Shown here piece after piece: positions 9,110-57,552 of a DNA stretch of 64,000 nt. The notes under the pieces were generated by a model that saw nothing but the letters and a program-made list of their open reading frames with translations, did no database searches and had not been told where the DNA came from. This DNA is from Oceanicaulis alexandrii DSM 11625 (lineage in GTDB: Bacteria > Pseudomonadota > Alphaproteobacteria > Caulobacterales > Maricaulaceae). Each line of letters opens with the position of its first letter. The stretch's first letter is position 1. The stretch spans positions 930,001-994,000 of the forward strand of contig NZ_ATUP01000001.1 in assembly GCF_000420265.1 (NCBI RefSeq). The letters run 5' to 3'. The position numbers were made by a program, and so were the translations under genes.

Positions 9110-9178
9110 GACAGCGCTATAAGACAAGCTCGCCTTTATTGGAAATACCCGGCGCGCGACATAGTGCAGCGGACAGCA

Positions 9179-9211
9179 AAGCGCCCCGGAGCTGTTCGCT
9201 CCGGGGCGCTT
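9179..9211 (-). terminator. Terminator of the phytase-linked TonB receptor
   Basis: A perfect 14-bp stem (9179-9192 with 9198-9211) with a 5-nt loop, 35 nt beyond the stop of the minus-strand receptor. The trailing T-tract on the minus strand is weak, so efficiency is uncertain, but the stem is very stable. Confidence 0.75.
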
Positions 9212-9245
9212 GCAGTCCATGGCGCGTCGTTAAAGACGCTCAGGC

Positions 9246-12032
9246 CTAGCCGCCAAAGGTGTAGCGGAAGCCGAACTGGGTCTGCCAGCCATACTCTTCA
9301 TACTGGGAGTTCAACTCAACTCCGCCATCACGGAAGGCCGCACGGAACGGCTCGTCAAAGGCGTTCTTGAAGTCGAAATACAGACGCAGATTATCGGTCA
9401 GATCGTACTTGGCGGAGAAATCAATCTGGGTGTGTTCCAGAGCGATCCGGTCTTCCGCCGCTTCGCCGCCCAGCTCATCAATGAAATCGTCGCGATACGA
9501 CAGCGCAGCGCGCAGATCGAGACGTCCGTCATCATAGCCAAGCATCAGGTTGAAAACGTTCTGGGACTGCAGAGGCAGCGTGATCTCACGACCATCCGCC
9601 AACGTCGCTTCGGAGTCCACATACGTGTAGTTCGCACCGATGAGGGTGTGCTGCAGAACGCTCGGCAGCATGGTGAGCGCCTGCTGGTAGTTGAACTCGA
9701 AGCCCAGCAGATCCGCCTCGTCGATATTGGCGAAGGTGGTCAGCTCGTTGATGTCTGCGCCATTCAGCTGGCCCGGATTGTCATCCACGAAGGTCGCGAT
9801 CAGATTGTCGATCGACTTGTAGAACACGCCGCCGGAGATCACTGCGTCTTCGGTAGGATAATACTCCACCATCAGATCAAAGTTCTGGGCCTGCTGGCGA
9901 TCGAGATCCGGATTGCCGGCTTCGGCCTCGTCATCATCGTCGATGACGATGCGCGGCGCCGTCTGCGCCAGGTTCGGGCGCGAGATCGAGGCGTAGTACG
10001 CACCGCGCACGATCACGTTCTCGGCGGCTTCATAGCGCAGGTTCACGCTGGGCAGCCAGTCAGTGTACGCGTTCTCGGCGCTGACCGAGGTGACGCTCTC
10101 AAGATCTTCGTCGATCTGGTTGCCCGTGGTGTCAAACTGGGTGTCTTCAACCCGAACGCCCGCAACGATACGAAGGGCGTCGATGTCCACAGAGCCCATC
10201 AGATAGGCCGAGAAGACGTCTTCCGAGGCGGAATAATCATCCCCGGCGCTGGCGAACAGCGTATCGGTGTCATCGAGTTCGAAATTGGCGCGGTTGGCGT
10301 TGAAGAAACCGCGAACCGTCTGAGGCACTGCAGCCGGACCGAACTCACCCAGCGGATACTCCACCGACGACGCGAAACCGGCCAGGGTCAGGTCATCGCC
10401 GGATCCATCGTCATAGCCGCCATACACCAAAGTGGTTGCATCATAGGACTTTTCACGGGTGCGATACTGAACGCCGGATTTCAAAAAGCCGAAATACTGA
10501 CCGAACGCCATGTCGCGCTGAACGTTGAACTGGAAGGACCATTCGTCATCTTCCGCAACGCCGTTCAGGAACTCCAGATCATCAAACTCATAGTTTGACG
10601 CATCCAGATAGGCGGCCTCGGCGGCGGCGTCGCCGAAAATCACTTGCGGCAGCATGGCGTCGTTCACGTTGACGCCGAAAACGCCCTCATCGAACTTGGC
10701 GCGAAACCCGGTATCGATCCGGTCGGGCTCGGCTTCTTCGGCATAGGCGTAGGCCAGCTGGTAATCGAGCGTCCAGGGACCGGTGAAGGTCTCGCCGCCC
10801 ACAGCGATGGCGTAGATGGTCTGCTCTTCCAGACGATCCTTGATGTCGCGGTCGACTTCGAACTCATCGCCGGTGGAGGCGTCAAAGAAGGCGCCGCCTC
10901 CCGACGAGCTATCGAGATAATCAGGGTCTTCAAACTTGTTCTCGACCCGCGAGCGATATTCCTGATCGGAGAAATCGGAATAAGTCGAGCGCAGATAGAG
11001 GTTGGTGGATTCAGTGGCGTCAAAATCGAGATTGAAGACCACGGAGGTGCGTTCGCGCGTGATGTCGTAATTGCGGTTCTCAAACTCACCCGGGAACGGA
11101 ACCGACACGCCGGTTTCCCAGCCGCCATCCACTTCGGCGTTTTCCGAGCCGAACTTGCGGAGCTGGTCGGAGATCGACAGAGCGACGCCCAGACGGCCAT
11201 CCATGAAGTTGTCGGCGAAGGTCAGAGAGCCGCGATAGCCGAACTCTTCCACCACATCGGCATAAATGCCGCGCAGGCTGAACTGCAGCAGGCGCTCGTC
11301 CTGATCCAGGCCCGAAAGCGTCTCGATCTCGATATTGCCGCCAATGGTGTCGCCAGACATGTCCGGGGTCAGCGATTTGGAGATCACGATCGAGGACAGG
11401 ACATCGGAATCGATCACATCGAGCGGAACCTGGCGGTTGTCCGCTTCAGGGGACGGCAGGCGCACGCCGTTCACCGTGGTGGTGTTCAAGTTCGGGTCGA
11501 TGCCGCGGATCGAGACAAAGCGGCCTTCGCCCTGATCGTTGAGCACGTTGACGCCCGCGATTCGGCGAGCGGCTTCCGCCACGTTTTCGTCAGGCAGGCG
11601 GTCCACAGCGTCGGCTGACAGAACAGAAATGAGACCTGCTGCGGCCCGCTGTCGGTTCAGCGCGCTGGTCAGCTGACCGCGCTGACCGATGATGAGAATA
11701 TTGTCATCGGCGGCGACGTCCGCGCCCAGCACGAAATTGGTCTCGACCTGATCGTCGGCGCTGATCAGGGTGACGGAACGGGTCTGGGCGTCCGCGCCCA
11801 GATAATCCACCACCAGGGTGAAATCACCTGCCGGCACATTGCTGAGACGGAAGGAGCCGTCACGCGCGGAGGACACTGTTTGACCGGTCTCGGAAATCCG
11901 GACAATAGCGCCCTGAAGACCGACCGTTCCGGTCGATTCTGTCACACGGCCGGTAATCTCGCCCGCTTGGGCCGCCCCCGCCGCAAGCGCCATCATGGAC
12001 GCCGCACCCAGCAAACTGGTCATACGCTTCAT
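9246..12032 (-). CDS. TonB-dependent receptor with carboxypeptidase-like N-terminal domain
   Basis: A 928-residue outer-membrane receptor. It has a signal peptide ending AGAAQA, then a carboxypeptidase-regulatory-like beta-sandwich (EITGRVTESTGTVGLQGA..., residues ~24-105). Next comes a plug domain with NVAEAARRIAGVNVLNDQG and FVSIRGIDPNLNTTTVNG, and a C-terminal barrel ending FRYTFGG. The family imports large substrates or their breakdown products through TonB. Met at 12032 is preferred over 12050 because GGGGA lies 7-8 nt upstream and the signal peptide starts there. It is divergent from a beta-propeller phytase, so its ligand may be phytate or inositol phosphates (inference from context). 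Confidence 0.88.
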   Translation of the reverse strand: MKRMTSLLGAASMMALAAGAAQAGEITGRVTESTGTVGLQGAIVRISETGQTVSSARDGSFRLSNVPAGDFTLVVDYLGADAQTRSVTLISADDQVETNFVLGADVAADDNILIIGQRGQLTSALNRQRAAAGLISVLSADAVDRLPDENVAEAARRIAGVNVLNDQGEGRFVSIRGIDPNLNTTTVNGVRLPSPEADNRQVPLDVIDSDVLSSIVISKSLTPDMSGDTIGGNIEIETLSGLDQDERLLQFSLRGIYADVVEEFGYRGSLTFADNFMDGRLGVALSISDQLRKFGSENAEVDGGWETGVSVPFPGEFENRNYDITRERTSVVFNLDFDATESTNLYLRSTYSDFSDQEYRSRVENKFEDPDYLDSSSGGGAFFDASTGDEFEVDRDIKDRLEEQTIYAIAVGGETFTGPWTLDYQLAYAYAEEAEPDRIDTGFRAKFDEGVFGVNVNDAMLPQVIFGDAAAEAAYLDASNYEFDDLEFLNGVAEDDEWSFQFNVQRDMAFGQYFGFLKSGVQYRTREKSYDATTLVYGGYDDGSGDDLTLAGFASSVEYPLGEFGPAAVPQTVRGFFNANRANFELDDTDTLFASAGDDYSASEDVFSAYLMGSVDIDALRIVAGVRVEDTQFDTTGNQIDEDLESVTSVSAENAYTDWLPSVNLRYEAAENVIVRGAYYASISRPNLAQTAPRIVIDDDDEAEAGNPDLDRQQAQNFDLMVEYYPTEDAVISGGVFYKSIDNLIATFVDDNPGQLNGADINELTTFANIDEADLLGFEFNYQQALTMLPSVLQHTLIGANYTYVDSEATLADGREITLPLQSQNVFNLMLGYDDGRLDLRAALSYRDDFIDELGGEAAEDRIALEHTQIDFSAKYDLTDNLRLYFDFKNAFDEPFRAAFRDGGVELNSQYEEYGWQTQFGFRYTFGG

Positions 12033-43843: not shown

Positions 43844-44215
43844 CTATTCGGTGCGCATTACGGGACCAAGGGTGAACCAGCACACATCCCGGCTCTCGCC
43901 GACCTGCAGATCAGGCCAGCCGTCGGGACAGTCCGCGGAAAAGGCGTCACTCATCATAGCGTCCGCCTCGGCGCATGTATTTTTACCCGTACTCAGCACA
44001 ATCTGGTCGCCGTCAACACGCCAGTCCAAATGTGCTTCCGCCGTGCAGAAGAGAATGTCTTTATGAAGCTCCGCACCGCCAGAGCTGGGGCCTTCACCAA
44101 AGAAGACAGAGCCTAACTCGCCCAGCTCATAGCTTTGCCCGGCCGGGCTGACCGCCCCCTCGCCCTCAGTAACGAGGGCCAAACTCGCCAACAGCCCGAT
44201 CATCCATGACGTCAT
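43844..44215 (-). CDS. Small exported C-W family protein, paralogue A
   Basis: A 123-residue protein with a signal peptide (MTSWMIGLLASLALV). I do not recognise its family, but it shares a layout with five neighbours. After the signal comes the box PAGQSYEL, then strand-rich sequence with a Cys. The end carries CPDGWPDLQVGESRDVCW and a terminal MRTE. Four cysteines suggest disulfides in the periplasm or at the surface. GGGGGCGAG lies upstream of ATG 44215. Directly followed by the DUF481 gene. Confidence 0.6.
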   Translation of the reverse strand: MTSWMIGLLASLALVTEGEGAVSPAGQSYELGELGSVFFGEGPSSGGAELHKDILFCTAEAHLDWRVDGDQIVLSTGKNTCAEADAMMSDAFSADCPDGWPDLQVGESRDVCWFTLGPVMRTE

Positions 44216-44348
44216 GTCTCGCCCCCTTCGGCTCAATTGCCCGGAAGGCTTGCACAATCAGGGTTAAGATCGCGCTTACCAGCGAACAGGTGACCGATGA
44301 GCTGGGGCTCTCGGAGCGAACGAGACCAGGCGTCGCCGCTCGACCGCC

Positions 44349-44777
44349 CTATTCGATACGGGTGATCCGCCAGTCGAGCGCGCCGCCCTCTGGTCCGAGC
44401 CAACAGACGCCCGTGGCTTCCCAGTCGCCGCCGACCGAGGTGATGTCTTCACCGATCGGATAATCGGGCCAGCTGCGGCATTCGGGACGTTCACCCCACG
44501 GATCCATCCAGAAAATGTCGGCGTCGACATAAAACCGGCCATTATTGGTTTCGCTCCACTCCGTCGACCAGGGATCGCTGCCCATGGCGTCAGAAATGCC
44601 GGAGACGGTGACCGAGCCGCCCTCTTCAAAGCGGATGGTGGCGGTGTCGCCGACCCGCGCGAAATCGGTGTTGCGGGTCGCCACGGCCTGAAAGACCTGA
44701 CCCGCCGGGCCGTCATTGGCCAAAGCGCACGGCGCGAGAAGGCTTAGCGCGAGGCTGGCGATAATCGTCTTGTTCAT
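44349..44777 (-). CDS. Small exported C-W family protein, paralogue B
   Basis: A 142-residue protein with a clear signal peptide (MNKTIIASLALSLLAPCALA), the box PAGQVFQA directly after it, and the C-terminal signature CRSWPDYPIGED, then GVCWLG and the ending WRITRIE. The C-to-CW spacing is longer than in paralogues A, C, D and F. No enzyme motif is seen. Mature cysteines are limited to the two signature residues, so one disulfide is likely. GGA lies 8-9 nt before the ATG. Confidence 0.6.
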   Translation of the reverse strand: MNKTIIASLALSLLAPCALANDGPAGQVFQAVATRNTDFARVGDTATIRFEEGGSVTVSGISDAMGSDPWSTEWSETNNGRFYVDADIFWMDPWGERPECRSWPDYPIGEDITSVGGDWEATGVCWLGPEGGALDWRITRIE

Positions 44778-44838
44778 AATCGTATCCTGTCTCCGCCGCT
44801 CTGGAGCGGCCGTGTTGGCGGCATGAAAAGGCTCAGCG

Positions 44839-45318
44839 CTATTGCGTCCGCGTCACCGAAAGGACGTTTGAATTAGTGATCCAGCACAGGTCCGAAGGCT
44901 GCGCGCTGGAGCCCACGTCAATGTGCGGCCAGGACTCGCAACTGACCTCGCTCTGCCCGTCTGCGAGAAGCTGCAAAGCGGGTCGTGGCGGTAATTCTTC
45001 ACCCTCATAACCCGGATCCGCGGCATCGCCCAAAATGGAGATCCGGCCGCCCCCTTCCGCATACCAGGTACCGGTCCCGCCGGGTTGATCAGCGCCGCCA
45101 ATGCCCGTTTCGGTGTAGCTGTCGATCAGACCGTCACCGAACGAGAAAGAGATCGCGCCGCCATAAATAGGCGGGGCGCTGCCAAATTCGACACGATAGA
45201 TCTGATTGAGCGGCGATGCGCTTTCATCCTGCCGGGCAAGCGCGCTCCCACACGTGACCGCCGAGGTCAGCGTCAGGCTAATCGCTGCGCCACAGATCAT
45301 TTTCAATCTCAAAGGCAT
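44839..45318 (-). CDS. Small exported C-W family protein, paralogue C
   Basis: A 159-residue protein. ATG 45318 is chosen for the GGGGGA site 7 nt upstream and the following signal peptide (MICGAAISLTLTSAVTCGSALA). The box is PLNQIYRV, the centre is Gly-rich (GIGGADQPGGTGTWYAEGGG), and the C-terminal signature is CESWPHIDVGSSAQPSDLCW, with ending VTRTQ. Function unknown. Its layout matches paralogue B closely, supporting tandem duplication. Confidence 0.6.
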   Translation of the reverse strand: MPLRLKMICGAAISLTLTSAVTCGSALARQDESASPLNQIYRVEFGSAPPIYGGAISFSFGDGLIDSYTETGIGGADQPGGTGTWYAEGGGRISILGDAADPGYEGEELPPRPALQLLADGQSEVSCESWPHIDVGSSAQPSDLCWITNSNVLSVTRTQ

Positions 45319-45402
45319 GCCGTCTTCCCCCATGCAAATTTGATGGGCGAAGACTAGGCGACAGGTCTTTAAGATCAGGTGAGCGTTGCGCGATCACGCG
45401 CT

Positions 45403-45909
45403 TTAGTCAGGGGCGCGCCCTGCGCCGTCAAACGGGCCATGGTCATAGCTGACGATGCGGGTGAGCTTCCATCCGTCCGCGTCCTGACGCCAGACATGCA
45501 GGAATCGCCCCTGTCCATGCGGCTCGTCCGCGCCGTAATTGATGAAGGCGTGCCAGCCGGTCTGGATCGCGCCATAGCCCGGCACCGGCCAGACCTCGAT
45601 GGAGCCTGGCGTCAGCTGCCGCTGGAAATTGCCGCAGATCGACGTGTTCACGGAATCAATCAGCGCCGCACGATCCAGGATCAGCCCGTCCACATCGTGA
45701 TAAAACTCGATACCTTCAGCGATATAGGCGCCGAACCCCTCGCCGTCACAGGAGTTGAACGCCTCAAACACCTGCGCATCCAGCGCAATGACCGTTTCCA
45801 GCAAAGGGGCTTCACCCCCCGCATCCGGCGCAGGCTGGGCGAACATCAGGGCGGCGGCGAGCAAGACGGACATGAGCAAGACTCCAAGGTGACGAACCCT
45901 CAGCTTCAT
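45403..45909 (-). CDS. Exported NTF2-like (DUF4440) protein
   Basis: A 168-residue protein: signal peptide (HLGVLLMSVLLAAALMFAQPA), then an NTF2/SnoaL-like cone domain of the DUF4440 type (LDAQVFEAFNSCDGEGFGAYIAEG; FLHVWRQDADGWKLTRIVSYDH). Members are mostly of unknown function; some are accessory domains binding small ligands. It lies inside the cluster of C-W paralogues on the same strand but shows no similarity to them. Confidence 0.75.
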   Translation of the reverse strand: MKLRVRHLGVLLMSVLLAAALMFAQPAPDAGGEAPLLETVIALDAQVFEAFNSCDGEGFGAYIAEGIEFYHDVDGLILDRAALIDSVNTSICGNFQRQLTPGSIEVWPVPGYGAIQTGWHAFINYGADEPHGQGRFLHVWRQDADGWKLTRIVSYDHGPFDGAGRAPD

Positions 45910-46096
45910 CCATTCCGCCCTTGCGTGACAGCGAAACCTTGGGTCTGAAAGATGTCTTTTTAGACAGGCGCCTCCCCCAGAACCGCCTCAAGCCGCCGAC
46001 GCAGACCGCGCTGGAATGATCATATCAATCGCTGTGCGCAAGGCGTATCATGGCGTGAGCGCATCCGCTGGATGCCCCCGTGCGAAGGAGCACACC

Positions 46097-46219
46097 ATGG
46101 CCAAAGGCCAGAAACGATCCAACAAGGAAATCAAGAAGCCCAAAGCGGACAAGAAAGCCGCCAGCGCGGCGCTGTCCCCGACTTCGGTCGGCGGCGTCAT
46201 GGACCGCACCCGCAAATAA
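46097..46219 (+). CDS. Small basic hypothetical protein
   Basis: A 40-residue Lys/Ser-rich protein (MAKGQKRSNKEIKKPKADKK..., ending GVMDRTRK) with a strong GAAGGAG ribosome site 6 nt before ATG 46097. Tiny proteins of this appearance recur in alphaproteobacterial genomes without known function. The composition suggests nucleic-acid binding (inference). It is the only plus-strand gene in the C-W cluster. A hairpin at 46231-46251 follows but lacks a T-run. Confidence 0.6.
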   Translation: MAKGQKRSNKEIKKPKADKKAASAALSPTSVGGVMDRTRK

Positions 46220-46281
46220 CGGGTCTGTCGCCGCGCCCTGACACGGCGCGGCCTCGCCTCGCTAGACTGCGGCTGACCTGT

Positions 46282-47151
46282 CTATTCGACCCGTTGAGGC
46301 GAGGCCGCGTCTTCAGCCATCGCCTCTGCGGTCTCCGCGTCCTGTGAGGCCAGCCGCGCCAGCAGATCAAAATCAATCTCTGAAATCCGCTCACTGACCG
46401 CTGCTGTCAGGTCTGTGGCGGGCGCGACTCCGAGCGCCTGAAGATCAGCGCTATCGGCGATCTCGACCTCTTGCGCCTCGGCCACCCGTCCCATCCCCAA
46501 GCGCGCAATGGACCGCGCCATGCCGCGTGCATAGATGCGGGCGCGCGCAGCCTCGGCCTCGCTCATCTCACCGCCAGCCAGGCGCGCATCAATCTCGGTC
46601 TGGGCCTGGATATAAGGCGGCCAGGTCTGGGCCGCGGCGTCCAGATCCGCGCCTGAAACGGGGGTCTCGCCTTCAGCGTCAGTGTCGGCATACCGGCTCA
46701 GATACATCGCCACATCCGACAGCGCGGCGCTGTCCGCCGTGCGCCAGTCATGGGCGGTCAGGCCGTTCTGCAGCACGCCTGCGCCATCGCTGATCACCAG
46801 CGTCGGCGTACCGAAACTCTCGATCACCCCGAAGCGCTGGAGCTGGTCCTGATTGCGCTGACGCTGGCCCACATCCACGCGCACCAGCACGTAATGATCC
46901 GCGATCAGGGCGGAGAGCCGCGCATCGTCCTCAAGTTTAGACGCCAGCCCCCGGCTGTCATGACACCAGTCAGCGCCGAACACGATCAGCGCCTGTTTGT
47001 CTTCGTCACGCGCCTGCGCCAGCGCCGCGTCGACCATTGCGGCGGCGTCTGCGTGTTCGGGATAAAACGCCGCATCGTGGGCGTCTTGCGCCAGTGCGGG
47101 TGAGCCAAACATGACAGCGAGGACCGCTGTGAGGACCAGTACGAGTTTCAC
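46282..47151 (-). CDS. Exported thioredoxin-like protein
   Basis: A 289-residue protein with a signal peptide (MKLVLVLTAVLAVMFGSPALA) and a thioredoxin fold. The active-site position reads GADWCHDSRGL, so only the first Cys of the usual pair remains; FGVIESFGTPTLVISDG carries the cis-Pro. A single-Cys site argues for isomerase-like or peroxidase-like chemistry, or for a non-redox role. The C-terminal ~100 residues are helical. It stands inside the cluster of Cys-containing small exported proteins, so a folding role for them is possible (inference only). Confidence 0.78.
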   Translation of the reverse strand: MKLVLVLTAVLAVMFGSPALAQDAHDAAFYPEHADAAAMVDAALAQARDEDKQALIVFGADWCHDSRGLASKLEDDARLSALIADHYVLVRVDVGQRQRNQDQLQRFGVIESFGTPTLVISDGAGVLQNGLTAHDWRTADSAALSDVAMYLSRYADTDAEGETPVSGADLDAAAQTWPPYIQAQTEIDARLAGGEMSEAEAARARIYARGMARSIARLGMGRVAEAQEVEIADSADLQALGVAPATDLTAAVSERISEIDFDLLARLASQDAETAEAMAEDAASPQRVE

Positions 47152-47214
47152 GACACATCCTTATTCTGACCCGCAATCATGGAATGATCCTGTCGGGCAT
47201 GAGCGGCGCTCACC

Positions 47215-47616
47215 TTATTCTATACGCCGCACACGATAATTATGCGCATTGACCCAGCAAACGTCCGTGCGGGTCTCGCCCACACTCATGTCTGGCCAGG
47301 CGTTACAATAGATGTCTTCGAAAAACACCGGTTGCACTGCGGACTCTACATCAAATTGCACCGCATAGGACGACAGCGTTAACAGTACGAACCCCGAGAT
47401 ATTGTTCGCAGTATCCTGAGCGCCGCTGCAAATCAGACTGCCCGTCAGAATGTCGTCTTGTGTCGTCTCAGCATCGAACTGAAGCGAGCATGAGAGTGTG
47501 GGATCAATCATAACGTCATAGAGATGCCCCAACGGGTATTCTGGCGCGGCGTCTTCAGACGCATCCAGGCTCGCCAAGGCCAGGCTGCCCGCAAGAAAAA
47601 TCAGGTTTGAAATCAT
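47215..47616 (-). CDS. Small exported C-W family protein, paralogue D
   Basis: A 133-residue protein. ATG 47616 follows an AGAGGAAA ribosome site and starts a signal peptide (MISNLIFLAGSLALASL). The box is PLGHLYDV, the centre contains two extra Cys (SCSLQF, LICSGA), and the C-terminal signature is YCNAWPDMSVGETRTDVCW, ending VRRIE. The signature spacing is the same as in paralogue F. Function unknown. Confidence 0.6.
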   Translation of the reverse strand: MISNLIFLAGSLALASLDASEDAAPEYPLGHLYDVMIDPTLSCSLQFDAETTQDDILTGSLICSGAQDTANNISGFVLLTLSSYAVQFDVESAVQPVFFEDIYCNAWPDMSVGETRTDVCWVNAHNYRVRRIE

Positions 47617-47808
47617 GGCTGTTTCCTCTGTCCGTTCAATATATCCAGCATGATGACCGATGACCCGGAAGCGAAGGCGATCCCGCCCGGAACCGCCAAA
47701 GCGGTCCATGGAGTTTTCATGATGCATCCCTCTTCGCTGACAGCTCAGCCTGGTGCGCCATAACAGCGGACAAGCCCCACAAAGACCTGATGAAGACCTA
47801 TCCGGCGC

Positions 47809-48234
47809 CTACTCTCCTTGCGGTCCGGAGATCACCCGCATCGCGCCATAGCGCTCGGGGTGATGCAGCTCGGCCCAGCAGCCTGCATCCTCATTGAGCC
47901 AGGCTGGCCCGGAACTGTCGCGGATATAGTCGGGTCGACCGTCCCAATCCTGGCCCGCCTCCAGCACAGGCCAAACATCGCAAAGCGAATGGCCACGCGG
48001 GAACTCAAGAATAATCGTCTCCCCTGTCGATTCCCAGCTGCCGACAAAGAACATGCAGGTATGGGGATCGTCGCCCTCTGACAGGACGTCGCCGTCGGCG
48101 GTGAATGTGACCTGACACGTATCGCCCTGGTAGACGACCTCCACGACTTCGCCGTCGGGCGTGCGGACGCCCTCCTGAGCCAACGCAGCGGCGGGGGTCG
48201 CGATGAGCGCAAAGAGTGCAAGGAGCTGTTTCAT
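47809..48234 (-). CDS. Small exported C-W family protein, paralogue E (divergent)
   Basis: A 141-residue protein with a signal peptide (MKQLLALFALIATPAAALA). It is the most divergent paralogue: the P-x-x-Q-x-Y box is replaced by PDGEVVEVVY, and the signature LCDVWPVLEAGQDWD is separated from GCWAE by about 23 extra residues. Cys pairs DTCQV and HTCMF match the central Cys of paralogue F. Its ATG overlaps the stop of paralogue F (ATGA at 48231), so the two are translationally coupled. Confidence 0.6.
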   Translation of the reverse strand: MKQLLALFALIATPAAALAQEGVRTPDGEVVEVVYQGDTCQVTFTADGDVLSEGDDPHTCMFFVGSWESTGETIILEFPRGHSLCDVWPVLEAGQDWDGRPDYIRDSSGPAWLNEDAGCWAELHHPERYGAMRVISGPQGE

Positions 48235-48602
48235 CGGATCCGCATCACCAGAGCATGCTCGCGCAGATCGACGTCCATCCAGCAGACATCTTGCGTGGTT
48301 TCGCCCTCGGCGATCTCCGGCCAATGCGTGCAGTCATTGGACAAGAACTGCTCGACATCACCGGTAAAGTGCGGCGCGCCGCTGCTCATCTCGATCACGC
48401 CTTCACGCAGGAACGCCCCACCATCACAGCTGAACATGAAAGCCAGCTCGTAATCGATCTCGAGCATGCAGCGCTCGTCCTCGAAATTGATCGTATAAGA
48501 CTGTCCGGCGGGCGAAGCGCCCGCCTCATCGGCGTACGCGACGCCCAGCGTCATCACGCCCAAGGCCAGCCCCGCCGCAGCGGTTTTCAGTACTGATGTC
48601 AT
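48231..48602 (-). CDS. Small exported C-W family protein, paralogue F
   Basis: A 123-residue protein with a signal peptide (MTSVLKTAAAGLALGVMTLGVAYA), the box PAGQSYTI (same opening as paralogue A), central Cys in RCMLEI and FSCDGG, and the C-terminal signature DCTHWPEIAEGETTQDVCW, ending VMRIR. It is the first gene of a coupled pair with paralogue E. Function unknown. Its 5' leader contains one copy of an imperfect repeat also found next to the integrase. Confidence 0.6.
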   Translation of the reverse strand: MTSVLKTAAAGLALGVMTLGVAYADEAGASPAGQSYTINFEDERCMLEIDYELAFMFSCDGGAFLREGVIEMSSGAPHFTGDVEQFLSNDCTHWPEIAEGETTQDVCWMDVDLREHALVMRIR

Positions 48603-48620
48603 GGCTGTCCCCTCTGCCCG

Positions 48621-48667
48621 TTTCGCAAAGCCTGCGCGATCCGGGATGAAGGGGGGATGAATAGAGG
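48621..48667. repeat. Imperfect direct repeat, copy 1
   Basis: Forty-seven nt matching 36 of 47 positions of 49460-49506. The longest shared block is GGGATGAAGGGGG. This copy lies just upstream of paralogue F, outside the thiC-linked element. Confidence 0.55.
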
Positions 48668-48947
48668 CCGATCGCTTTGATTTTATAGGTTAATGAGACC
48701 TTGAGGCGGCGACTGACGCGCCGCACGTTTACCCCGCACGGAGCAGTCCGGCAGGGTGGCGAGCGCGCGCGAGACTGTCGTCTTCGGCCGGCGAGGCCGG
48801 CAAGCAGCAAGGTACAGCGAGGTCCGACGAGTCCCGCGCGCGAGCATGTTATCCGGGGTGGGGCCGGGCGCAGTGACGCGCCCGATTACGCCGGTCCGAT
48901 ATGAAGGGCCGGGGCGGATGGCGCCCCGGTTGATCCCTTTTCAAGCC
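48668..48947. other. Non-coding G+C-rich stretch
   Basis: No supported gene. Several short G+C-rich hairpins occur (for example CCGGGGCG...CGCCCCGG near 48909-48930). Together with the next feature it looks like decayed or repeat-type DNA between the C-W cluster and the thiC-linked element. Confidence 0.4.
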
Positions 48948-49134
48948 TTACCCCTGACGCTTGGTCTCTGAGATCCTGCCCTGGCGAGTCATGTCATCCA
49001 GAACACATCCGATCAGATCCCGTCCGTACAGACCGTCACAGGCCGCTTCATACCTGACCGGACCCCACACGCGCCGCCGTCAGCGCGCCTGTCCGCTCTT
49101 TTGCGACAGGGTGCGAACCCGCCGCTCGAGGCAT
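48948..49134 (-). pseudogene. Possible frameshifted small gene
   Basis: From ATG 49134, preceded by GGGGAGGGGGC, the minus strand reads MPRAAGSHPVAKERTGALTAAR before stopping early. A +1 shift at the GTGTGGGG run near 49066-49071 continues as VWGPVRYEAACDGLYGRDLI..., ending in TKRQG at 48948. The second part has protein-like composition. I do not recognise a family; it may be a broken gene or a coincidence. Confidence 0.3.
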
Positions 49135-49255
49135 GCCCCCTCCCCGAACCTGTCAAGACGCCTCCGGACACGCCCCACCCTCAGGGAAGTGCGCGCAGCT
49201 TAAAGCGTGGGGGATGGGGTGGGGATAAGGGGGACGGGGAAGGGCTCTTACCCTG

Positions 49256-49346
49256 TCTTCTCTTTCCCGGCGAAGGCCGGGATCCAGAGCCTTGAAACGC
49301 CTGCGCTTGTCCTCTCTGGGTCCCCGCCTTCGCAGGGAAAGAGAGG
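49256..49346. repeat. REP-like inverted repeat pair
   Basis: Left arm 49256-49289 (TCTTTCCCGGCGAAGGCCGG...) and right arm 49313-49346 (...CCCCGCCTTCGCAGGGAAAG) are imperfect reverse complements, each itself palindromic around CGAAGGC/GCCTTCG. This form is typical of dispersed intergenic REP-type elements in alphaproteobacteria. Confidence 0.7.
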
Positions 49347-49368
49347 TGAGTGAGGAAAAGAAGACGGC

Positions 49369-49398
49369 AAAAAGGCCGAGCGACCCTGCCCGGCCTTT
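49369..49398 (-). terminator. Terminator, probably the displaced terminator of thiC
   Basis: Stem AAAGGCCG (49371-49378) with CGGCCTTT (49391-49398), followed on minus by TTTTT. No minus-strand gene ends next to it now. It would lie about 24 nt past the thiC stop if the 2.07-kb element were removed. Confidence 0.65.
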
Positions 49399-49421
49399 CG
49401 CAATCCCTCAAGCGCCAACCG

Positions 49422-49443
49422 CCCCTAATCAATCGGCTCGCGC
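49422..49443. repeat. Left attachment-site repeat (att)
   Basis: CCCCTAATCAATCGGCTCGC plus a final GC, identical to 51494-51515. It is 87 nt from the integrase start. Read on minus, sequence just right of it encodes GKGKK before REPID-stop, partly resembling the genuine thiC end (KGET before REPID-stop). Confidence 0.8.
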
Positions 49444-49459
49444 TTTTTGCCTTTTCCCA

Positions 49460-49506
49460 TTTCGCAGTGTTTGCGCAATGGGGGATGAAGGGGGCGTGAA
49501 TGGGGG
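49460..49506. repeat. Imperfect direct repeat, copy 2
   Basis: Matches 36 of 47 positions of 48621-48667. This copy lies inside the element, between the left att repeat and the integrase start, so it may be an integrase arm site or a dispersed repeat. Confidence 0.5.
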
Positions 49507-49529
49507 GAGCAGTGTGCTATAAGTTGCAC

Positions 49530-50780
49530 ATGCCTGAACGTGTTCTTCTTACTCCAGAATTCGTCAATTCAGTTGAGCCACCAGAAGCCGGTGAACGCTG
49601 GATATCTGATCTCAAGGTTCGCGGATTTGGTCTTAGAGTGTGGCGTCAGCCTCATGGCTCCTTTGGCTGCGCGTACGCCGTCCGGGCCAAAGGTTCCGAC
49701 GGAAAGTACGTACGCAAAACAGGACCAAGCTGGCGATTTGCGTACGATTGGCGCGAGGAACACCAACTTTGGCGTCAAATGTATGGTGACCTTGAAGAGC
49801 CAACTTTTGGGGAACTTCTACCCTTTGCGAGAGAGTGGGCAAACGAGCAGATACTAGCCTTAAGAGGGCTGCCCACGTTAGCTGAACAAGAGGCAGAACA
49901 GGAGGAATTCAGAGCGTTCAAGCGCAACCAAATGAGCAATTTGAGCTTTGAGGAATTAGTTGAGCTAGAATTAAAGCGAATGCAATATAGGGATATAGAT
50001 CAAAATTACATCGATCGCTCAGCAAAACTATTTTACAGATACTTTCCCGATGCAATCCGATCATGCAAAATAACAAGCATTGATATAGAAAAAATAAATT
50101 TAATACTAAACGATTACCATTTGACAGATTCCAACTTTAACGTCCTCCGCCCCCTAATTGGAAGGTCATACAAGCTCGCTCAATTTTATGGCCCCATAGA
50201 AACAATAAAGAATTGGGACATATCCAAAATTGATCGAAAATTTAATGATAAAGTTTCGATCACACAACTAAACGATTGGAATAACGATGACACCGAAAGC
50301 TTTATTAATTTTATATATGATCTTGATGCACCATGGCAATCTCGTATCGCCATCTGCTTGTTTCTATCTTTAAAAAGAATACCCCTATCCCAACTATTAT
50401 CTGCATGTTGGGACCAACTCGAAATTATGGTCCCAACGGACGGCGATCAATCCCATGCCTCTCATGTGAACTTTCGATGGGCAGAAGGATGGCTCGGATT
50501 TGAACAAGTGTCTAAAGATGCAGGGACATGGCTTGAAAAGGCCCTTACTCACAAAACAGATAAGAGCACTTATAAGAATTACTTGTTTCCGTCGCCGAGA
50601 GAGGGATTGAAGTCGCATTTACAGACAATCGACGCGACATGGTCACAAGCTCTAAGGATAAAGGGAATACCTTACATTTCGGTCGTGAAATTTCGAAAGT
50701 CACTTAACGACACACAGACTAGCCACCTCTACCACCATCAATTTTGGAAACAGGCATGGCAACCAAGACTTACAGAATGA
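49530..50780 (+). CDS. Divergent tyrosine recombinase (integrase-like)
   Basis: A 416-residue protein. Residues ~1-60 match the Arm-DNA-binding (DUF4102-like) domain of island integrases (LTPEFVNSVEPPEAGERWIS then VRGFGLRVW). A core-binding-like helical region follows (~140-260). The catalytic half is strongly divergent: SLKRIPLSQLLSACWDQLE stands where R-x-x-E-x-x-x-L-x-W is expected, the H-x-x-R box is replaced by a segment around VVKFRKSLND, and LYHHQFWKQAW is a candidate Tyr region. Codon use is A+T-rich from about 49900 on. ATG 49530 is chosen from the domain boundary. It may be inactive or use an altered active site. Confidence 0.65.
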   Translation: MPERVLLTPEFVNSVEPPEAGERWISDLKVRGFGLRVWRQPHGSFGCAYAVRAKGSDGKYVRKTGPSWRFAYDWREEHQLWRQMYGDLEEPTFGELLPFAREWANEQILALRGLPTLAEQEAEQEEFRAFKRNQMSNLSFEELVELELKRMQYRDIDQNYIDRSAKLFYRYFPDAIRSCKITSIDIEKINLILNDYHLTDSNFNVLRPLIGRSYKLAQFYGPIETIKNWDISKIDRKFNDKVSITQLNDWNNDDTESFINFIYDLDAPWQSRIAICLFLSLKRIPLSQLLSACWDQLEIMVPTDGDQSHASHVNFRWAEGWLGFEQVSKDAGTWLEKALTHKTDKSTYKNYLFPSPREGLKSHLQTIDATWSQALRIKGIPYISVVKFRKSLNDTQTSHLYHHQFWKQAWQPRLTE

Positions 50781-51493: not shown

Positions 51494-53811
<2,318 letters not shown>

Positions 53812-53817
53812 CGCGCT

Positions 53818-53907
53818 GCTCCATCCCGCCGCCGGCATGACCCGGATCCGGTCCTGAGGGTGACGTCTCAGCCCCGCACGACCACCGTGCGGGACACCCC
53901 TTGGAAC
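53818..53907 (-). promoter_or_regulatory. TPP riboswitch (THI element)
   Basis: On minus, the conserved aptamer core is present: GGGGCTGAGA with its partner ACCCTCAGGACC (pyrimidine sensor side) and GGATCCGGGTCATGCCGGCG (pyrophosphate sensor side, differing little from consensus). The closing helix pairs GTTCCA (53902-53907 complement) with TGGAGC (53818-53823 complement). That 3' strand contains the GGAG ribosome site of the YjbR gene, so TPP binding would hide it: translational control of YjbR-thiC. Confidence 0.93.
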
Positions 53908-54001
53908 TGTTCCCACACTGAAGACGCCTGACGCGCTTGGCAAGGGTTTGCGTTCATTCGCTCTGGGCAAATGCGCACTGACCGGATATAAGAAGCGCAC
54001 A

Positions 54002-54038
54002 GAAAAAAGACCCGCCCGGGGGGATCCGGAGCGGGTCT
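54002..54038 (-). terminator. Terminator of the reb operon
   Basis: Stem AGACCCGC (54008-54015) with GCGGGTCT (54031-54038), followed on minus by TTTTTT; about 50 nt past the stop of the last reb gene and before the thiC leader. Confidence 0.9.
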
Positions 54039-54090
54039 AGGTCCAAGTCGCATGGAGCCGGCGAGAGCGATCTCGTCGGCTTCATCGCAT

Positions 54091-54381
54091 TTAGGTCGAC
54101 GAGAAGTTGGCCGAGATCATCCGCGCGACGGCGATGGCGTCGGAGATGGTGTCCACGGAATAGATCTGCATCACGCCCTGGGTGGAGGCGGCCTGGGCGT
54201 TGGTGAAGGCGTGCGACTGGGCGTTCACCGCGTTCTCGAACATCAGGCCGTGCGAGTGCGCCAGCGCCTGATAGACATTGCCCATCGCCATGGCCGGCGC
54301 TTCACCGACCACTTTGACGTTTGACTGGGTCACCGCGTCGGTGACCTGGGAATTCACTTGTTCGTTGGCTTGGGTAGACAT
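54091..54381 (-). CDS. rebB: RebB-family R-body structural protein
   Basis: A 96-residue protein of the RebB ('killing trait') family, the building block of R-bodies. These are coiled proteinaceous ribbons first known from Caedibacter that unroll explosively on a pH change. Recognised by VNSQVTDAVTQSNVKVVGEA, PAMAMGNVYQALAHSHGL, and TQGVMQIYSVDTISDA. It has no signal peptide. GAGGACTT lies before ATG 54381. It is the last gene of the operon and is preceded by a 101-nt gap with a stable hairpin, which could set its expression apart from the upstream genes. Confidence 0.88.
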   Translation of the reverse strand: MSTQANEQVNSQVTDAVTQSNVKVVGEAPAMAMGNVYQALAHSHGLMFENAVNAQSHAFTNAQAASTQGVMQIYSVDTISDAIAVARMISANFSST

Positions 54382-54413
54382 TTCAAGTCCTCATTGTTGT
54401 GTCGTGGTGAAGT

Positions 54414-54443
54414 GCAGACCCGATCCCTGTGAGCGGGATCTGC
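54414..54443 (-). promoter_or_regulatory. Hairpin between reb genes
   Basis: A 9-bp stem with one bulged base and an 11-nt loop in the leader of rebB, without a following T-run. It may be an RNA processing or stabilising element tuning rebB expression. Confidence 0.4.
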
Positions 54444-54482
54444 GAGGCTTTCTGGAGCGCTGACGCCCTCAGAAACTTGGGA

Positions 54483-54737
54483 TCAGTCCTGATTGACGCT
54501 GACCGACGGGCCGTTATTGGGATTCCAGATGGTCTCCGCGCTGCGGCCGAGCGTCAGGATGTAGGCGACGCAAGTCGCTGTGGTGGCGGCTGCGGTCTGG
54601 TTGTTGAGAAGCTGGCTCTGGACATTGCCTTCGAACAGCTTCGCCAGGGAGCTGGCGCTGGCGTTCGTCGCGATGCTTTCGCTGCTGACGACCCCGAGCT
54701 CGTCGATGGTCAGGGTGATCTGTTTTTCTTCGCTCAT
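54483..54737 (-). CDS. Small reb-operon protein, unrecognised
   Basis: An 84-residue protein. It has an N-terminal strand-like part (KQITLTIDELGVVSS), an Ala/Ser/Asn-rich helical middle with QSQLLNNQTAAATTATCVAYIL, and a short Pro/Asn tail (WNPNNGPSVSVNQD). The middle recalls the low-complexity helical character of R-body subunits, but it lacks the RebB signature. AAAGGAG 6 nt before the ATG is a strong ribosome site. It is 11 nt after the 133-residue gene, firmly in the reb operon. A role in ribbon assembly is inference from position. Confidence 0.65.
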   Translation of the reverse strand: MSEEKQITLTIDELGVVSSESIATNASASSLAKLFEGNVQSQLLNNQTAAATTATCVAYILTLGRSAETIWNPNNGPSVSVNQD

Positions 54738-54748
54738 GATGGTCTCCT

Positions 54749-55150
54749 TTAGAATGGAATGCCCGCGAGTTTCTGGGCGATCCGGGCTTGGATCAGGCTG
54801 GTGCGGCGGGCGATGGAGGCGGATTGTTCCTGTTGGCGGGCGATCGCCGCTTGTTCGAGACGTTGACGCATCGCCGCTTCGTCTGACGCTTGCGCCTCGG
54901 CCTCGGTCATTTTCGCCCCCGGCCCGAACCCCGGAATGGGCGGAATATCGATGGGCGTTTGCGGGACCCGGGTTTCAGGAATGGGCGGGTCCGGGATTGA
55001 CGGGTCGGGGATGGGCGGATCGGGAATGACCTCGCCATTGTCCGCCTTCATCGCCTGGATATCCGCCCAGATCTGGTTCAGGACCGCGCTCAAAGGCTCG
55101 ATCTCCGCCATCACGATCGAACGGACTTGCTGTTTGAAGGCTTCATTCAT
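54749..55150 (-). CDS. Proline-repeat/coiled-coil reb-operon protein
   Basis: A 133-residue cytoplasmic protein. It has an N-terminal helix (QQVRSIVMAEIEPLSAVLNQI) and a repeat zone of I-P-D-P-P units (about residues 43-65: IPDPPIPDPSIPDPP and PIPET), giving a stiff extended linker. A Gln/Ala/Arg-rich C-terminal helix follows, likely coiled-coil (RQRLEQAAIARQQEQSASIA). No known family. Such a rod could link or cap R-body subunits, which is speculation from position. GAGG lies 7 nt before the ATG. Confidence 0.65.
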   Translation of the reverse strand: MNEAFKQQVRSIVMAEIEPLSAVLNQIWADIQAMKADNGEVIPDPPIPDPSIPDPPIPETRVPQTPIDIPPIPGFGPGAKMTEAEAQASDEAAMRQRLEQAAIARQQEQSASIARRTSLIQARIAQKLAGIPF

Positions 55151-55177
55151 GGCTGAACCTCGTGATCCTTCAGCGCG

Positions 55178-56122
55178 TTAGATCGTGAAAAAGACGTCGT
55201 TAGGACCACCACCGGGGACCGGATTGCGCGTGTAGCGACGCCCCACCACCATCGGCGCACCGCGACCGGGAACGTTCTGAAGATCATCATCTTCCGGAGT
55301 CACCAGACCGGTCAGTCCGGCTACGCCCCGAAGCGCGCCCCCGACCCCGGCTGCAATCGGGCCAAAGGCGAAGCTGAGCCCGGTGGCGATCAACCCGCCC
55401 GCTTGCAGAACCCCGATCGTGACTTTCTTGGCGGTGGAAGAAATGCCGAGCCCCAGGGCGGCCTGTTGCGACGTGGCGGTCATATCGGTCAGCTCGAACC
55501 CGAAAGACCCGCAGACCGACGCCACTTCAGCGGCGAGCTCCATATCCATGAAGCGCTTGAGATTGGCCGCTTCGTCAGAAGACAGCTCATCAAAAGCGAT
55601 TGTCGTATTCTCGGTCCGGTATTTCAGATCCCCGGCGCCGTTCTTCTGGATGCTGATCAAGGTCTGGGCGAGGCACGATGTCGGCACCGTGATCTGCAAC
55701 AGACCGTCATGATCGCCCTGGGCGATGTCGGCGATGTCGGTCATCGGCAGATAGCTGACCTGAGCCGATATCTCGTTGGGATTCAGCGCTTCCAGCGCCA
55801 GAACCACCAGCCCCGGTTCGCCGTCGGCCCATTCGACCAGAAAGCTGGCGCACCCAGATTTGCTGGGAATGAAGACCCGGCGGATTGTTGGCGTCAGCGC
55901 GCTGCCGTTCAGCATGACGCGCACCAGGGGATTGCCGGTGTCTGGCGACGACGCCCCCAGATGCAGGCGCGGCGCGCCGACGGCGTCATAGCTTTCAGTT
56001 TGCGCGTCCAGATAGACTTGCGGTTCAAGCGCTTCGATGGGCGGAATCCCGGGGGTGAAGACCGGCTTCAACCGCGCCGCATAGCTGTCTGATGGATCGT
56101 TTTTTGTGGCCTGGCGGTTCAT
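55178..56122 (-). CDS. 314-residue reb-operon protein, unrecognised
   Basis: The largest protein of the operon. Residues ~1-190 look beta-rich and soluble (YLDAQTESYDAVGAPRLHLG; CASFLVEWADGEPGLVVLAL). Residues ~225-285 form a Gly/Ala-rich hydrophobic stretch (VTIGVLQAGGLIATGLSFAF, FGPIAAGVGGALRGVAGLTG) that could insert into a membrane or pack in a ribbon. The tail ends PGGGPNDVFFTI. No family was recognised. Its ATG overlaps the stop of the upstream gene (56119-56122), and GGGAG lies upstream. Confidence 0.65.
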   Translation of the reverse strand: MNRQATKNDPSDSYAARLKPVFTPGIPPIEALEPQVYLDAQTESYDAVGAPRLHLGASSPDTGNPLVRVMLNGSALTPTIRRVFIPSKSGCASFLVEWADGEPGLVVLALEALNPNEISAQVSYLPMTDIADIAQGDHDGLLQITVPTSCLAQTLISIQKNGAGDLKYRTENTTIAFDELSSDEAANLKRFMDMELAAEVASVCGSFGFELTDMTATSQQAALGLGISSTAKKVTIGVLQAGGLIATGLSFAFGPIAAGVGGALRGVAGLTGLVTPEDDDLQNVPGRGAPMVVGRRYTRNPVPGGGPNDVFFTI

Positions 56123-56637
56123 GATCCAAAGTCTCCCTTGATGCTGCTGGCGGTGCTGGTGACGCCGCTCGAGAAGGTGATCAGCGAGGTTTGCCAGGTC
56201 GCCAGCTCTTGAAGCGCCTTCTTGCCGGTATCCTGTGTGGCGGGGTCGAGCAGAAGCGCCATCGCCTGACCGGAGGCGGCGAGCACCAGTTGTTCGGAGC
56301 CCTGCATGTAGCCGCGCAAATCCTCGAGCATCATCACCGCCGCCTGGTCCGCGACCGGGTTTTCAAGCGCCGCGAGGACTTCACCCGTCTGCGCGGTCAG
56401 CTGGGCCTGATTGAAGGCCACCGCTTTTTGAACATCGGTTGTGGGCGTCGGCAGGCTGGCGCTGGCCAGCGTGTCGCCCTCATCGGAGATGACGTCGTCG
56501 GCCAGGTCCTGTGCGTCGGTGACGGCGTCGTCCAGGGCCGCATCTTCAGCAGCTTGCGCCGCTGACGGGCTGGTGGGCTTGGGCTTGGCCTTGCCCAGCC
56601 GCGTGCGCGGGGTTCTGGGGGTGGGTTGTCTCGCCAT
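56119..56637 (-). CDS. 172-residue reb-operon protein, unrecognised
   Basis: A basic, Pro/Thr-rich N-terminal tail (RQPTPRTPRTRLGKAKPKPT), an acidic segment (DDAVTDAQDLADDVISDEGD), then an Ala/Gln-rich helical domain (AVAFNQAQLTAQTGEVLAAL; GSEQLVLAASGQAMALLLD; SLITFSSGVTSTASSIKGD). The C-terminal part resembles R-body and phasin-like helical proteins in composition but has no clear signature. AGGAGGA lies 7 nt before the ATG. It is coupled to the next gene by a 4-nt overlap. Confidence 0.65.
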   Translation of the reverse strand: MARQPTPRTPRTRLGKAKPKPTSPSAAQAAEDAALDDAVTDAQDLADDVISDEGDTLASASLPTPTTDVQKAVAFNQAQLTAQTGEVLAALENPVADQAAVMMLEDLRGYMQGSEQLVLAASGQAMALLLDPATQDTGKKALQELATWQTSLITFSSGVTSTASSIKGDFGS

Positions 56638-56654
56638 CGCCGGATCCTCCTGCT

Positions 56655-56879
56655 CTATGAGCCGTTAATCTTGGCGATCGCCTGGGCGACGATCGAAGGA
56701 TTGAGCTGGTTGAGGTTTTGCTGGTTGGAGACCGAATTGGTCAGCGCCAACCCGTTGGCGTTCGCCAGACTCTGGTAGAGCGCCCCGATCGCCACGGATG
56801 GCGCCTCGGCCAACACGCCGACAGCGGTTTGCGCCACCGCATCGGTGATCTTCCCGTTGACCTCGTCAGAACTCGCCAT
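56655..56879 (-). CDS. RebB-family protein, short paralogue
   Basis: A 74-residue RebB-family protein, first gene of the operon. VNGKITDAVAQTAVGVLAEA and PSVAIGALYQSLANANGLAL align directly with the last gene's VNSQVTDAVTQSNVKVVGEA and PAMAMGNVYQALAHSHGLMF. It lacks the C-terminal IYSVDT block of the longer paralogue. AGGAGGTGAGAG before the ATG is a near-ideal ribosome site. Reb loci usually carry several RebB-like subunits, so both may co-assemble. Confidence 0.82.
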   Translation of the reverse strand: MASSDEVNGKITDAVAQTAVGVLAEAPSVAIGALYQSLANANGLALTNSVSNQQNLNQLNPSIVAQAIAKINGS

Positions 56880-57039
56880 CTCTCACCTCCTGAATACCCG
56901 GTGAGTAAAAACAACCCTGACGAGAGTCGCTATGGCGACAATGTCCCTTGCGTTGCAGATTGACTTCGCGCTTAAATTGAAGCCGAACAAAGGAGGAACC
57001 GCGCTCAGGCGCTCAGACTTGACGTTGAGGAGAGTACAA

Positions 57040-57552
57040 TTGACCTCGCACCCCCTTCCCCTGAAAGGCGCCGACATGCTGGCGAAATCCATCGAAGCTA
57101 TTGATGCGCCATACAAATTAATCGCCCCGCGGCTAGGTGCGACCCAGGACCCCTCCTTGATAAAGTTCATAGAGGTCCACTTTGACGCGCTGACGCCGCA
57201 TCTGAACTGGTTCACCGTAGAGTTGTTTTTTCAATGCGGCGTCGCACGCGGGCTGGCGTATCTGGATCGCCACGCCTCCAAGCGGATCAGCACCCAGAAA
57301 ATCCTGGCCGATATTCCGGGCTCCTCCCGGTTCACCTCGGTGGTGATGAACAATGCGGGTCAGACCGGCTATGTGGAAATTCAATCCAAATCCGGCTTCA
57401 TCGAGAATATTCGCCGGTTCATCGCCGTAGAGGCGCTCAACGCAGGCGCGTCCACCGCGGAAGTGGCGCACCTCTGCGGGGTCAGCGTCCGCACAGTCCA
57501 GCGGCTGCAACGCAGCGGCGTGCAAGCACAGGCGCAAGAGCGCACGTCCTAG
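57040..57552 (+). CDS. HTH protein divergent from the reb operon (probable regulator)
   Basis: About 170 residues. The middle (LNWFTVELFFQCGVARGLAY; GSSRFTSVVMNNAGQTGYVE) is an unrecognised domain. The end is a clear helix-turn-helix of resolvase/LuxR-like form (AGASTAEVAHLCGVSVRTVQRLQ). The start is uncertain: TTG 57040 with GAGGAGA upstream, or ATG 57076 with AAAGG; a longer frame from 56932 also exists. It is divergent from the reb genes across about 160 nt, which contain a GTCGC-TATG-GCGAC palindrome at 56926-56939. Control of reb expression is the natural inference. Confidence 0.65.
   Translation: MTSHPLPLKGADMLAKSIEAIDAPYKLIAPRLGATQDPSLIKFIEVHFDALTPHLNWFTVELFFQCGVARGLAYLDRHASKRISTQKILADIPGSSRFTSVVMNNAGQTGYVEIQSKSGFIENIRRFIAVEALNAGASTAEVAHLCGVSVRTVQRLQRSGVQAQAQERTS

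What the first reader, a model, noticed from the sequence alone, without database searches (positions are those of the whole stretch)
54091..57552. R-body (reb) locus with a divergent HTH gene
Seen: six minus-strand genes with strong ribosome sites and gaps of -4 to 101 nt. The first (56655-56879) and last (54091-54381) are clear RebB-family proteins sharing V-N-x-x-[IV]-T-D-A-V and P-x-[MV]-A-[MI]-G-x-[VL]-Y-Q. A terminator with a T-run closes the operon, and an HTH gene lies divergent. Known: RebB proteins form R-bodies, contractile ribbons linked to killing in Caedibacter and to host interactions in some other proteobacteria. Inference: this bacterium can make R-bodies, perhaps against grazers or hosts.
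Basis: partly seen in the sequence, partly recalled or inferred. Interest (0 to 1): 0.8.

Follow-up and report, generated by a model that had tools for sequence, protein, structure and literature searches.

The report
R-body operon with fast-evolving middle gene
A marine alphaproteobacterium (genus Oceanicaulis) carries an operon for R-bodies, coiled protein ribbons that some bacteria use against the eukaryotes they meet; the ribbon genes are nearly unchanged between related strains while one gene in the middle differs so much that it is a candidate for the part that touches the target.

Summary
Both end genes are RebB-family proteins far above Pfam's cut-off, the six-gene layout is as described, and a strong hairpin with a T-run follows. 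The genome is of the genus of Oceanicaulis sp. HTCC2633; Reb homologues in Oceanicaulis alexandrii were already reported (PMC3583457), so 'R-body locus' is correct but not new. One correction: the divergent HTH gene most likely starts at TTG 57040 (170 aa), not ATG 56932; the stretch between is a near-invariant regulatory block, out of frame in one congener. The centre is less ordinary. In three congeners with this operon beside thiC the two RebB proteins are 88-99% identical, but the 314-aa product of 55178-56122 only 31-37%, with 52 invariant alignment columns. Outside these three genomes I found only one weak partial match, and it matches neither partner set tested. Two other middle proteins (84 and, more weakly, 172 aa) look like remote Reb relatives. 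I propose a ribbon of RebB-type subunits with a fast-evolving, target-facing passenger; that role is inferred, and simple drift is the main rival. New variant of a known kind, moderate interest.

The parts
56655..56879 (-). rebA74: RebB-family ribbon protein, 74 aa, first gene of the operon
   Evidence: PF11747 6.8e-18; 88-91% identical in three congeners, dN/dS 0.07-0.12
56119..56637 (-). g172: possible remote ('secondary') Reb relative; variable N-terminus, conserved C-terminal half
   Evidence: No Pfam family below E 0.1; weak match to the second half of Reb-containing profiles (E 0.002-0.004, probability 9-14%), but a direct comparison with a 15-Reb profile gave E 0.16, probability 0.4%; a 112-aa form lies between two rebs in G413
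55178..56122 (-). g314: fast-evolving middle protein, 314 aa; beta-rich domain (about residues 79-176 in a weak model), long helix, two C-terminal hydrophobic segments (234-252, 256-274)
   Evidence: 30.5-36.6% identity among three congeners (alignment); DNA does not align 55104-56128 against G586; models; hydrophobicity; no match at family cut-offs in Pfam or NCBIfam and none at E 0.1 in PHROGs or PADLOC
54749..55150 (-). g133: proline-rich middle, also fast-evolving
   Evidence: 29-55% identity among congeners, dN/dS 0.44-0.91; alignment A7; no family
54483..54737 (-). g84: probable remote ('secondary') Reb relative
   Evidence: hhalign to 15 Rebs E 5e-4, probability 30%; E 1e-4, probability 58% to a Reb-containing profile; core SLAKLFEGNVQ.QL.NNQ invariant in three
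54091..54381 (-). rebZ96: RebB-family ribbon protein, 96 aa, last gene
   Evidence: PF11747 2.5e-28; 88-99% identical in three congeners, dN/dS 0.02-0.13
54008..54038 (-). intrinsic terminator closing the operon (hairpin, then a T-run)
   Evidence: z -5.06 for 54000-54092
57040..57552 (+). divergent HTH gene, revised start TTG 57040, 170 aa, HTH near the C-terminus; candidate regulator of the operon
   Evidence: found only in the three genomes with the six-gene operon: 3 of 15 in the genus, 3 of 398 in the order
56895..57005 (.). near-invariant block between rebA74 and the HTH gene; candidate shared promoter/operator
   Evidence: 90% and 93% identical over 111 and 108 bp in two congeners, one copy each, no match in the other 12 of 15 genus genomes; 68 of 71 columns of 56932-57002 invariant; no unusual RNA folding (z -0.80 and 0.21)
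56926..56939 (.). dyad GTCGC-TATG-GCGAC, the only perfect inverted repeat found in 56880-57040 with arms of 5-8 and spacers of 0-8; candidate operator

Best explanation
An R-body operon. RebA74 and RebZ96 (with the Reb-like g84 and perhaps g172 as minor or assembly subunits) build a coiled cytoplasmic ribbon. The 314-aa protein g314, with proline-rich g133 as a possible linker, is not ribbon but a passenger or end-piece: a beta-rich domain for binding and a C-terminal hydrophobic pair that may stick to or enter a membrane when the ribbon unrolls inside a cell that has taken up the bacterium. It changes fast because it faces a changing target. Transcription starts from a conserved shared promoter block, controlled by the divergent HTH protein. 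Shown: Reb identity, operon layout, conservation pattern, the block. Inferred: ribbon formation, passenger role, membrane contact, HTH control.
For: RebB membership; only reb site in the genome. Same operon, HTH gene and block beside thiC in G503 and G586. Identity over three pairs: thiC 97-99%, M19 92-93%, RebZ 88-99%, RebA 88-91%, g172 61-82%, g84 47-88%, g133 29-55%, g314 31-37%. Of 50 window ORFs of 150+ aa, 45 have a match in each congener region; median identity is 81.8% (G586) and 80.7% (G503), and g314 is third and second lowest, the lowest of those longer than 170 aa. dN/dS of g314 is 0.57-0.87 while its dS (0.96-1.26) lies within the span of rebA74 (0.50-1.46) and a little above M19 (0.76-0.79), so much of the excess is in the protein. 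G413 keeps rebA, a short g172 and rebZ without g314, g133, g84 or the HTH gene, so the middle part is separable. All three g314 proteins have two hydrophobic C-terminal segments. In four loci with the A. brasilense-type large partner (HP1.1 by my reading) that partner is 34-49% identical where one Reb from each locus is 75-88%.
Against: No ribbon, expression or toxicity data. dN/dS is below 1, so relaxed constraint is not excluded; at 31-37% identity alignment and dS are rough, and dS of g314 is above that of thiC (0.22-0.25) and rebZ (0.30-0.75). In two other congener sets no cluster ORF is as diverged as g314; the lowest there is a 109-aa ORF at 44-49%. The C-terminal hydrophobic segments (mean 1.26-1.89 over 19 residues) are borderline for membrane insertion and not outstanding: stretches elsewhere in the same proteins score up to 1.74. 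Models are weak (pLDDT 47.7 and 64.2) and no structural match was significant.
Confidence: 0.42

Rival explanations
1. Ordinary R-body operon in which g314 and g133 are scaffold or linker proteins under weak sequence constraint; nothing faces a target and the divergence is drift.
For: dN/dS below 1; low-complexity proline-rich g133; in other reb loci partner ORFs are also less conserved than the small Rebs, e.g. 44-86% against 77-99% between L046 and its congeners L048 and L050 (best local match).
Against: g314 stays an intact ORF with 52 invariant columns in three genomes and is far below the local median identity.
Confidence: 0.31
2. g314 alleles are swapped by recombination from a wider pool, so the pattern is gene replacement rather than in-place fast evolution.
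For: Against G586 the alignable DNA (89% on one side, 77% on the other) stops at 55104 and resumes at 56128, almost the ends of g314. dS of g314 exceeds that of thiC and rebZ.
Against: Against G503 the unalignable part is wider, taking in g133 and parts of its neighbours; dS of g314 is within the span of rebA74; no pool of g314-like genes was found: 2 loci, both Oceanicaulis, in genome contigs, none in viral contigs or plasmids, one weak partial match among 289 class genomes besides the window's own.
Confidence: 0.16
3. A reduced reb locus that no longer makes R-bodies; the small proteins have another cytoplasmic role.
For: Only two clear RebB proteins, against 6-11 matches in several other genomes; 10 of the 14 genus genomes have no reb match.
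Against: Purifying selection on both Rebs, terminator, ribosome-site-like AGGAGG before rebA74, near-invariant block.
Confidence: 0.11

Closest known systems
Group 1 reb synteny with HP1.1-HP1.4 (Raymann et al. 2013, PMC3583457; opening and Results parts 1-2 of 3 read); example used: Azospirillum brasilense plasmid NZ_CP059453.1, L128
   Same: Rebs, then a 155-172 aa Reb-like protein, a 116-133 aa protein and a 314-359 aa protein; in these loci too the largest partner is more diverged than the Rebs. Which A. brasilense genes are HP1.1-HP1.3 is my reading from size and order.
   Different: Gene order differs; g314 and g133 give no profile match to these proteins, though the profiles are shallow.
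reb clusters with a sigma factor and a Crp-like regulator (Raymann Group 2 by my reading): Ruegeria pomeroyi megaplasmid L127; P. aeruginosa PA14 reb cluster (PMC8322103; passages and one section read)
   Same: Two or three ribbon genes plus uncharacterised partners, with regulatory genes beside them.
   Different: No sigma factor or Crp/Fnr gene next to this operon; partners do not match those of Ruegeria. PA14 partners were not compared.
Azorhizobium caulinodans reb operon with PraR and RebR (PMC5527310; abstract and passages read)
   Same: Alphaproteobacterial reb operon under tight transcriptional control; the RebR palindrome GT(A/G)(A/C)C-N4-G(T/G)(T/C)AC has the same arm and spacer lengths as the dyad here.
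   Different: The local regulator candidate is a small HTH protein with no Crp-Fnr match; the dyad GTCGC-N4-GCGAC does not fit the RebR consensus.
Caedibacter taeniospiralis pKAP298 reb genes
   Same: RebB-family ribbon proteins; tblastn of RebZ96 finds them at 44% identity.
   Different: Plasmid of an obligate endosymbiont; a relative of RebC was not sought here.

Membership tests
RebB family (Pfam PF11747) | Profile score above the curated cut-off of 24 bits | tested here: met
   98.4 and 65.0 bits for 54091-54381 and 56655-56879
reb gene cluster | Two or more Reb genes close together | tested here: met
   Two hits 2.3 kb apart, the only two in the genome
reb cluster as counted by Dorr et al. 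2026 (PMC13430693; abstract and Results read) | At least three reb homologues, primary or secondary, in one cluster | tested here: inconclusive
   Two clear Rebs; g84 (E 1e-4 to 5e-4) and g172 (E 0.002 to 0.16) match Reb profiles only weakly
Primary Reb proteins (signature motifs in PMC13430693) | QITD-like motif, conserved proline, KxxxD/E, conserved tyrosine, NAV, QQ | tested here: inconclusive
   Read by eye: RebZ96 has QVTD, proline, KVVGE, tyrosine and NAV but no QQ; RebA74 has KITD, proline, tyrosine, NSV and QQ but no lysine at the KxxxE place
Raymann Group 1 | Homologues of HP1.1-HP1.4 | tested here: inconclusive
   g314 and g133 match no A. brasilense-type partner profile; g84 and g172 match the Reb-containing ones weakly; shallow profiles, sizes similar
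Raymann Group 2 | Homologues of HP2.1 and HP2.2 | tested here: inconclusive
   Only the partners of Ruegeria (assigned to Group 2 by me) were compared; no match for g314 or g133
Raymann Group 2 | Frequent (not universal) sigma factor and Crp-type regulator with the cluster | tested here: not met
   Neighbours between 51.5 and 61.4 kb are thiC (recognised by me), YjbR, the HTH gene, M19 peptidase, a beta-lactamase-like gene and an AraC-type regulator; the rest of the genome was not searched for them
R-body | Insoluble coiled ribbon seen by electron microscopy | not testable with these tools
   needs experiment

The most novel reading that the evidence does not exclude
g314 is a diversifying effector or receptor-binding end-piece carried on the R-body, so that R-bodies are delivery devices with changeable, target-specific heads rather than mere springs. 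The beta-rich domain gave weak, sub-threshold resemblance to lipid-binding StARkin folds, which would fit a sterol- or lipid-binding head.
Probability: 0.2. Interest if true: 0.75.

Novelty: new variant of a known kind. Interest (0 to 1): 0.45.

Why it matters
How R-bodies harm eukaryotes is open: as PMC3583457 puts it, the Caedibacter reb genes in E. coli make the ribbon but do not give killing, so an unidentified partner is suspected. [quoted passage not shown] It makes the question testable by removing one gene.
Full report
What is there. The outer two, 56655-56879 and 54091-54381, are RebB-family proteins (PF11747, 6.8e-18 and 2.5e-28), and the model finds no other place in this 3.02-Mb genome. 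The four middle genes reach no Pfam or NCBIfam cut-off (best E 0.07-0.14 where anything was listed). The operon ends in a hairpin and T-run at 54038-54008. Downstream lie a TPP riboswitch, a YjbR gene and thiC (recognised by me; no family search was run on it); beyond the HTH gene lies an M19 peptidase gene.

Whose it is. The congener G586 has a contig of the same length (3,168,988) as Oceanicaulis sp. HTCC2633 NZ_CH672428.1, and G503 one (101,112) as Oceanicaulis sp. MMSF_3324 NZ_JASHIU010000012.1, so the window, which the genome tool places in the same genus, is from an Oceanicaulis-type bacterium (Maricaulaceae). PMC3583457 (opening and Results parts 1-2 of 3 read) already names Oceanicaulis alexandrii among Reb-harbouring taxa isolated from dinoflagellates. 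The existence of reb here is therefore known.

Distribution. Reb occurs in 27 of 398 genomes drawn from the order and in 4 of the 14 genus members in that draw, and in 11 of 398 drawn from the phylum, 10 of them over the cut-off; both draws include the window's own genome. The HTH gene is in 3 of 15 genus genomes and 3 of 398 of the order, and these three are the ones with the six-gene operon. G413 has a three-gene form (rebA, 112-aa g172, rebZ), also next to thiC. In G493 thiC and M19 are neighbours with a 1.1-kb gap that holds another gene instead; in G547 thiC and M19 lie apart. So reb is patchy, but in all four genus genomes that have it, it sits beside thiC.

The fast-evolving centre. Across the three congeners (aligned identity, three pairs): thiC 97.0-98.7%, M19 92.0-92.5%, RebZ 87.6-99.0%, RebA 87.8-90.5%, g172 60.6-82.2%, g84 46.9-88.1%, g133 29.2-55.0%, g314 30.5-36.6%. 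dN/dS: Rebs 0.02-0.13, thiC and M19 0.05-0.07, g172 0.17-0.31, g84 0.20-0.64, g133 0.44-0.91, g314 0.57-0.87. dS: thiC 0.22-0.25, RebZ 0.30-0.75, M19 0.76-0.79, RebA 0.50-1.46, g172 0.74-1.25, g314 0.96-1.26; at such divergence dS is rough. As a local yardstick, of 50 window ORFs of 150 aa or more, 45 had a match in each congener region, with median identity 81.8% (G586) and 80.7% (G503); g314 ranked third and second from the bottom, and the ORFs below it lie in a variable stretch at 44.8-47.7 kb. Five of the 50 had no match at all. Against G586 the nucleotide alignment breaks at 55104 and resumes at 56128, almost the ends of g314; against G503 the breaks are wider and take in g133 and parts of g84 and g172.

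What g314 looks like. AlphaFold2 on three sequences gave a weak model (mean pLDDT 47.7, pTM 0.45), better for residues 16-212 alone (64.2, pTM 0.62; ten-residue means of 66-87 for model residues 61-190): a beta-rich domain and a helix. The C-terminal third has two hydrophobic segments in each of the three proteins, mean 1.26-1.89 over 19 residues, but the beta-rich part holds stretches that score as high (up to 1.74). Fold comparison gave only sub-threshold matches, StARkin-like ones first for the whole model. A scan of genome contigs confirmed 2 of 86 pattern stretches, both the known congeners; viral contigs gave 0 of 42 and plasmids none. In a class-wide draw 2 of 289 genomes matched, the window's own and G198 (37% over 83 residues, E 5e-4, not followed up).

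The other middle genes. g84 aligns with the second half of the Reb domain (E 5e-4, probability 30%; E 1e-4, probability 58%). g172 does so much more weakly (E 0.002-0.004, probability 9-14%; E 0.16, probability 0.4%). These E-values are for single comparisons. Both fall in the same part of the Reb domain, so I think they are remote 'secondary' Rebs in the sense of PMC13430693 (abstract and Results read); this is not proven. g133 is proline-rich and matches nothing.

Comparison with published partner sets. I gathered 41 reb loci, the window's own included, and searched their ORFs. g314, g133 and the HTH gene reach E below 0.01 only in the three Oceanicaulis with the six-gene operon. The large A. 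brasilense partner (HP1.1 by my reading) occurs in 4 of 41 loci, where it is 34-49% identical while one Reb that I picked from each of these loci is 75-88% identical to the others. So a fast large partner may be a wider theme, less extreme than here; in two congener sets of other genera the least conserved cluster ORF was at 44-49%.

Regulation. In 56932-57002, 68 of 71 columns are invariant; read as codons, 22 of 23 third positions, against 32 of 74 in rebA74, 203 of 424 in M19 and 499 of 635 in thiC. Because G586 carries an extra base between this stretch and the HTH frame, the stretch is not the start of the HTH protein. It overlaps one dyad, GTCGC-TATG-GCGAC at 56926-56939, and was found only at this locus in the genus. 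I infer a shared promoter with operator sites; no sigma-70 consensus was found.

Mechanism, with my odds. A reb locus: near certain. Makes R-bodies under some condition: about 0.7. g314 and g133 are non-ribbon accessory proteins: about 0.7. g314 is a target- or membrane-facing passenger: about 0.35-0.4. The last is inference from rate contrast and separability; drift remains the strongest rival.

Noticed in passing
L038 7901-8278, L039 7964-8800, L040 7820-8191, L042 8144-8527: In a sister genus of the same family, 4 of 7 reb-bearing genomes have a lone Reb gene whose product begins with a signal-peptide-like hydrophobic stretch before the Reb motif, as if this Reb were exported; judged by eye.
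   Followed up: no
window 43844-50780: Variable stretch on the far side of thiC: several ORFs absent from or very different in both congeners, including a 426-aa ORF at 49500-50780 without a Pfam or PHROG match.
   Followed up: partly
window 53431-53911: A TPP riboswitch (53807-53911, minus strand) lies upstream of a YjbR gene and thiC, so the YjbR gene may be under thiamine control.
   Followed up: no
L076 about 8950-9850: In G493 the gap between thiC and M19 holds a different gene (a putative lipoprotein, read by eye) instead of the reb operon, so this may be a small exchange spot.
   Followed up: partly
L004 (G198:C2:729484-729729): A distant class member gives a weak 83-residue match to g314 (37%, E 5e-4); chance or the only outside relative.
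   Followed up: no
L052, L054, L058, L059, L060: A lone Reb with a long alanine- and glutamine-rich C-terminal tail recurs in five genomes of one genus of the order.
   Followed up: no
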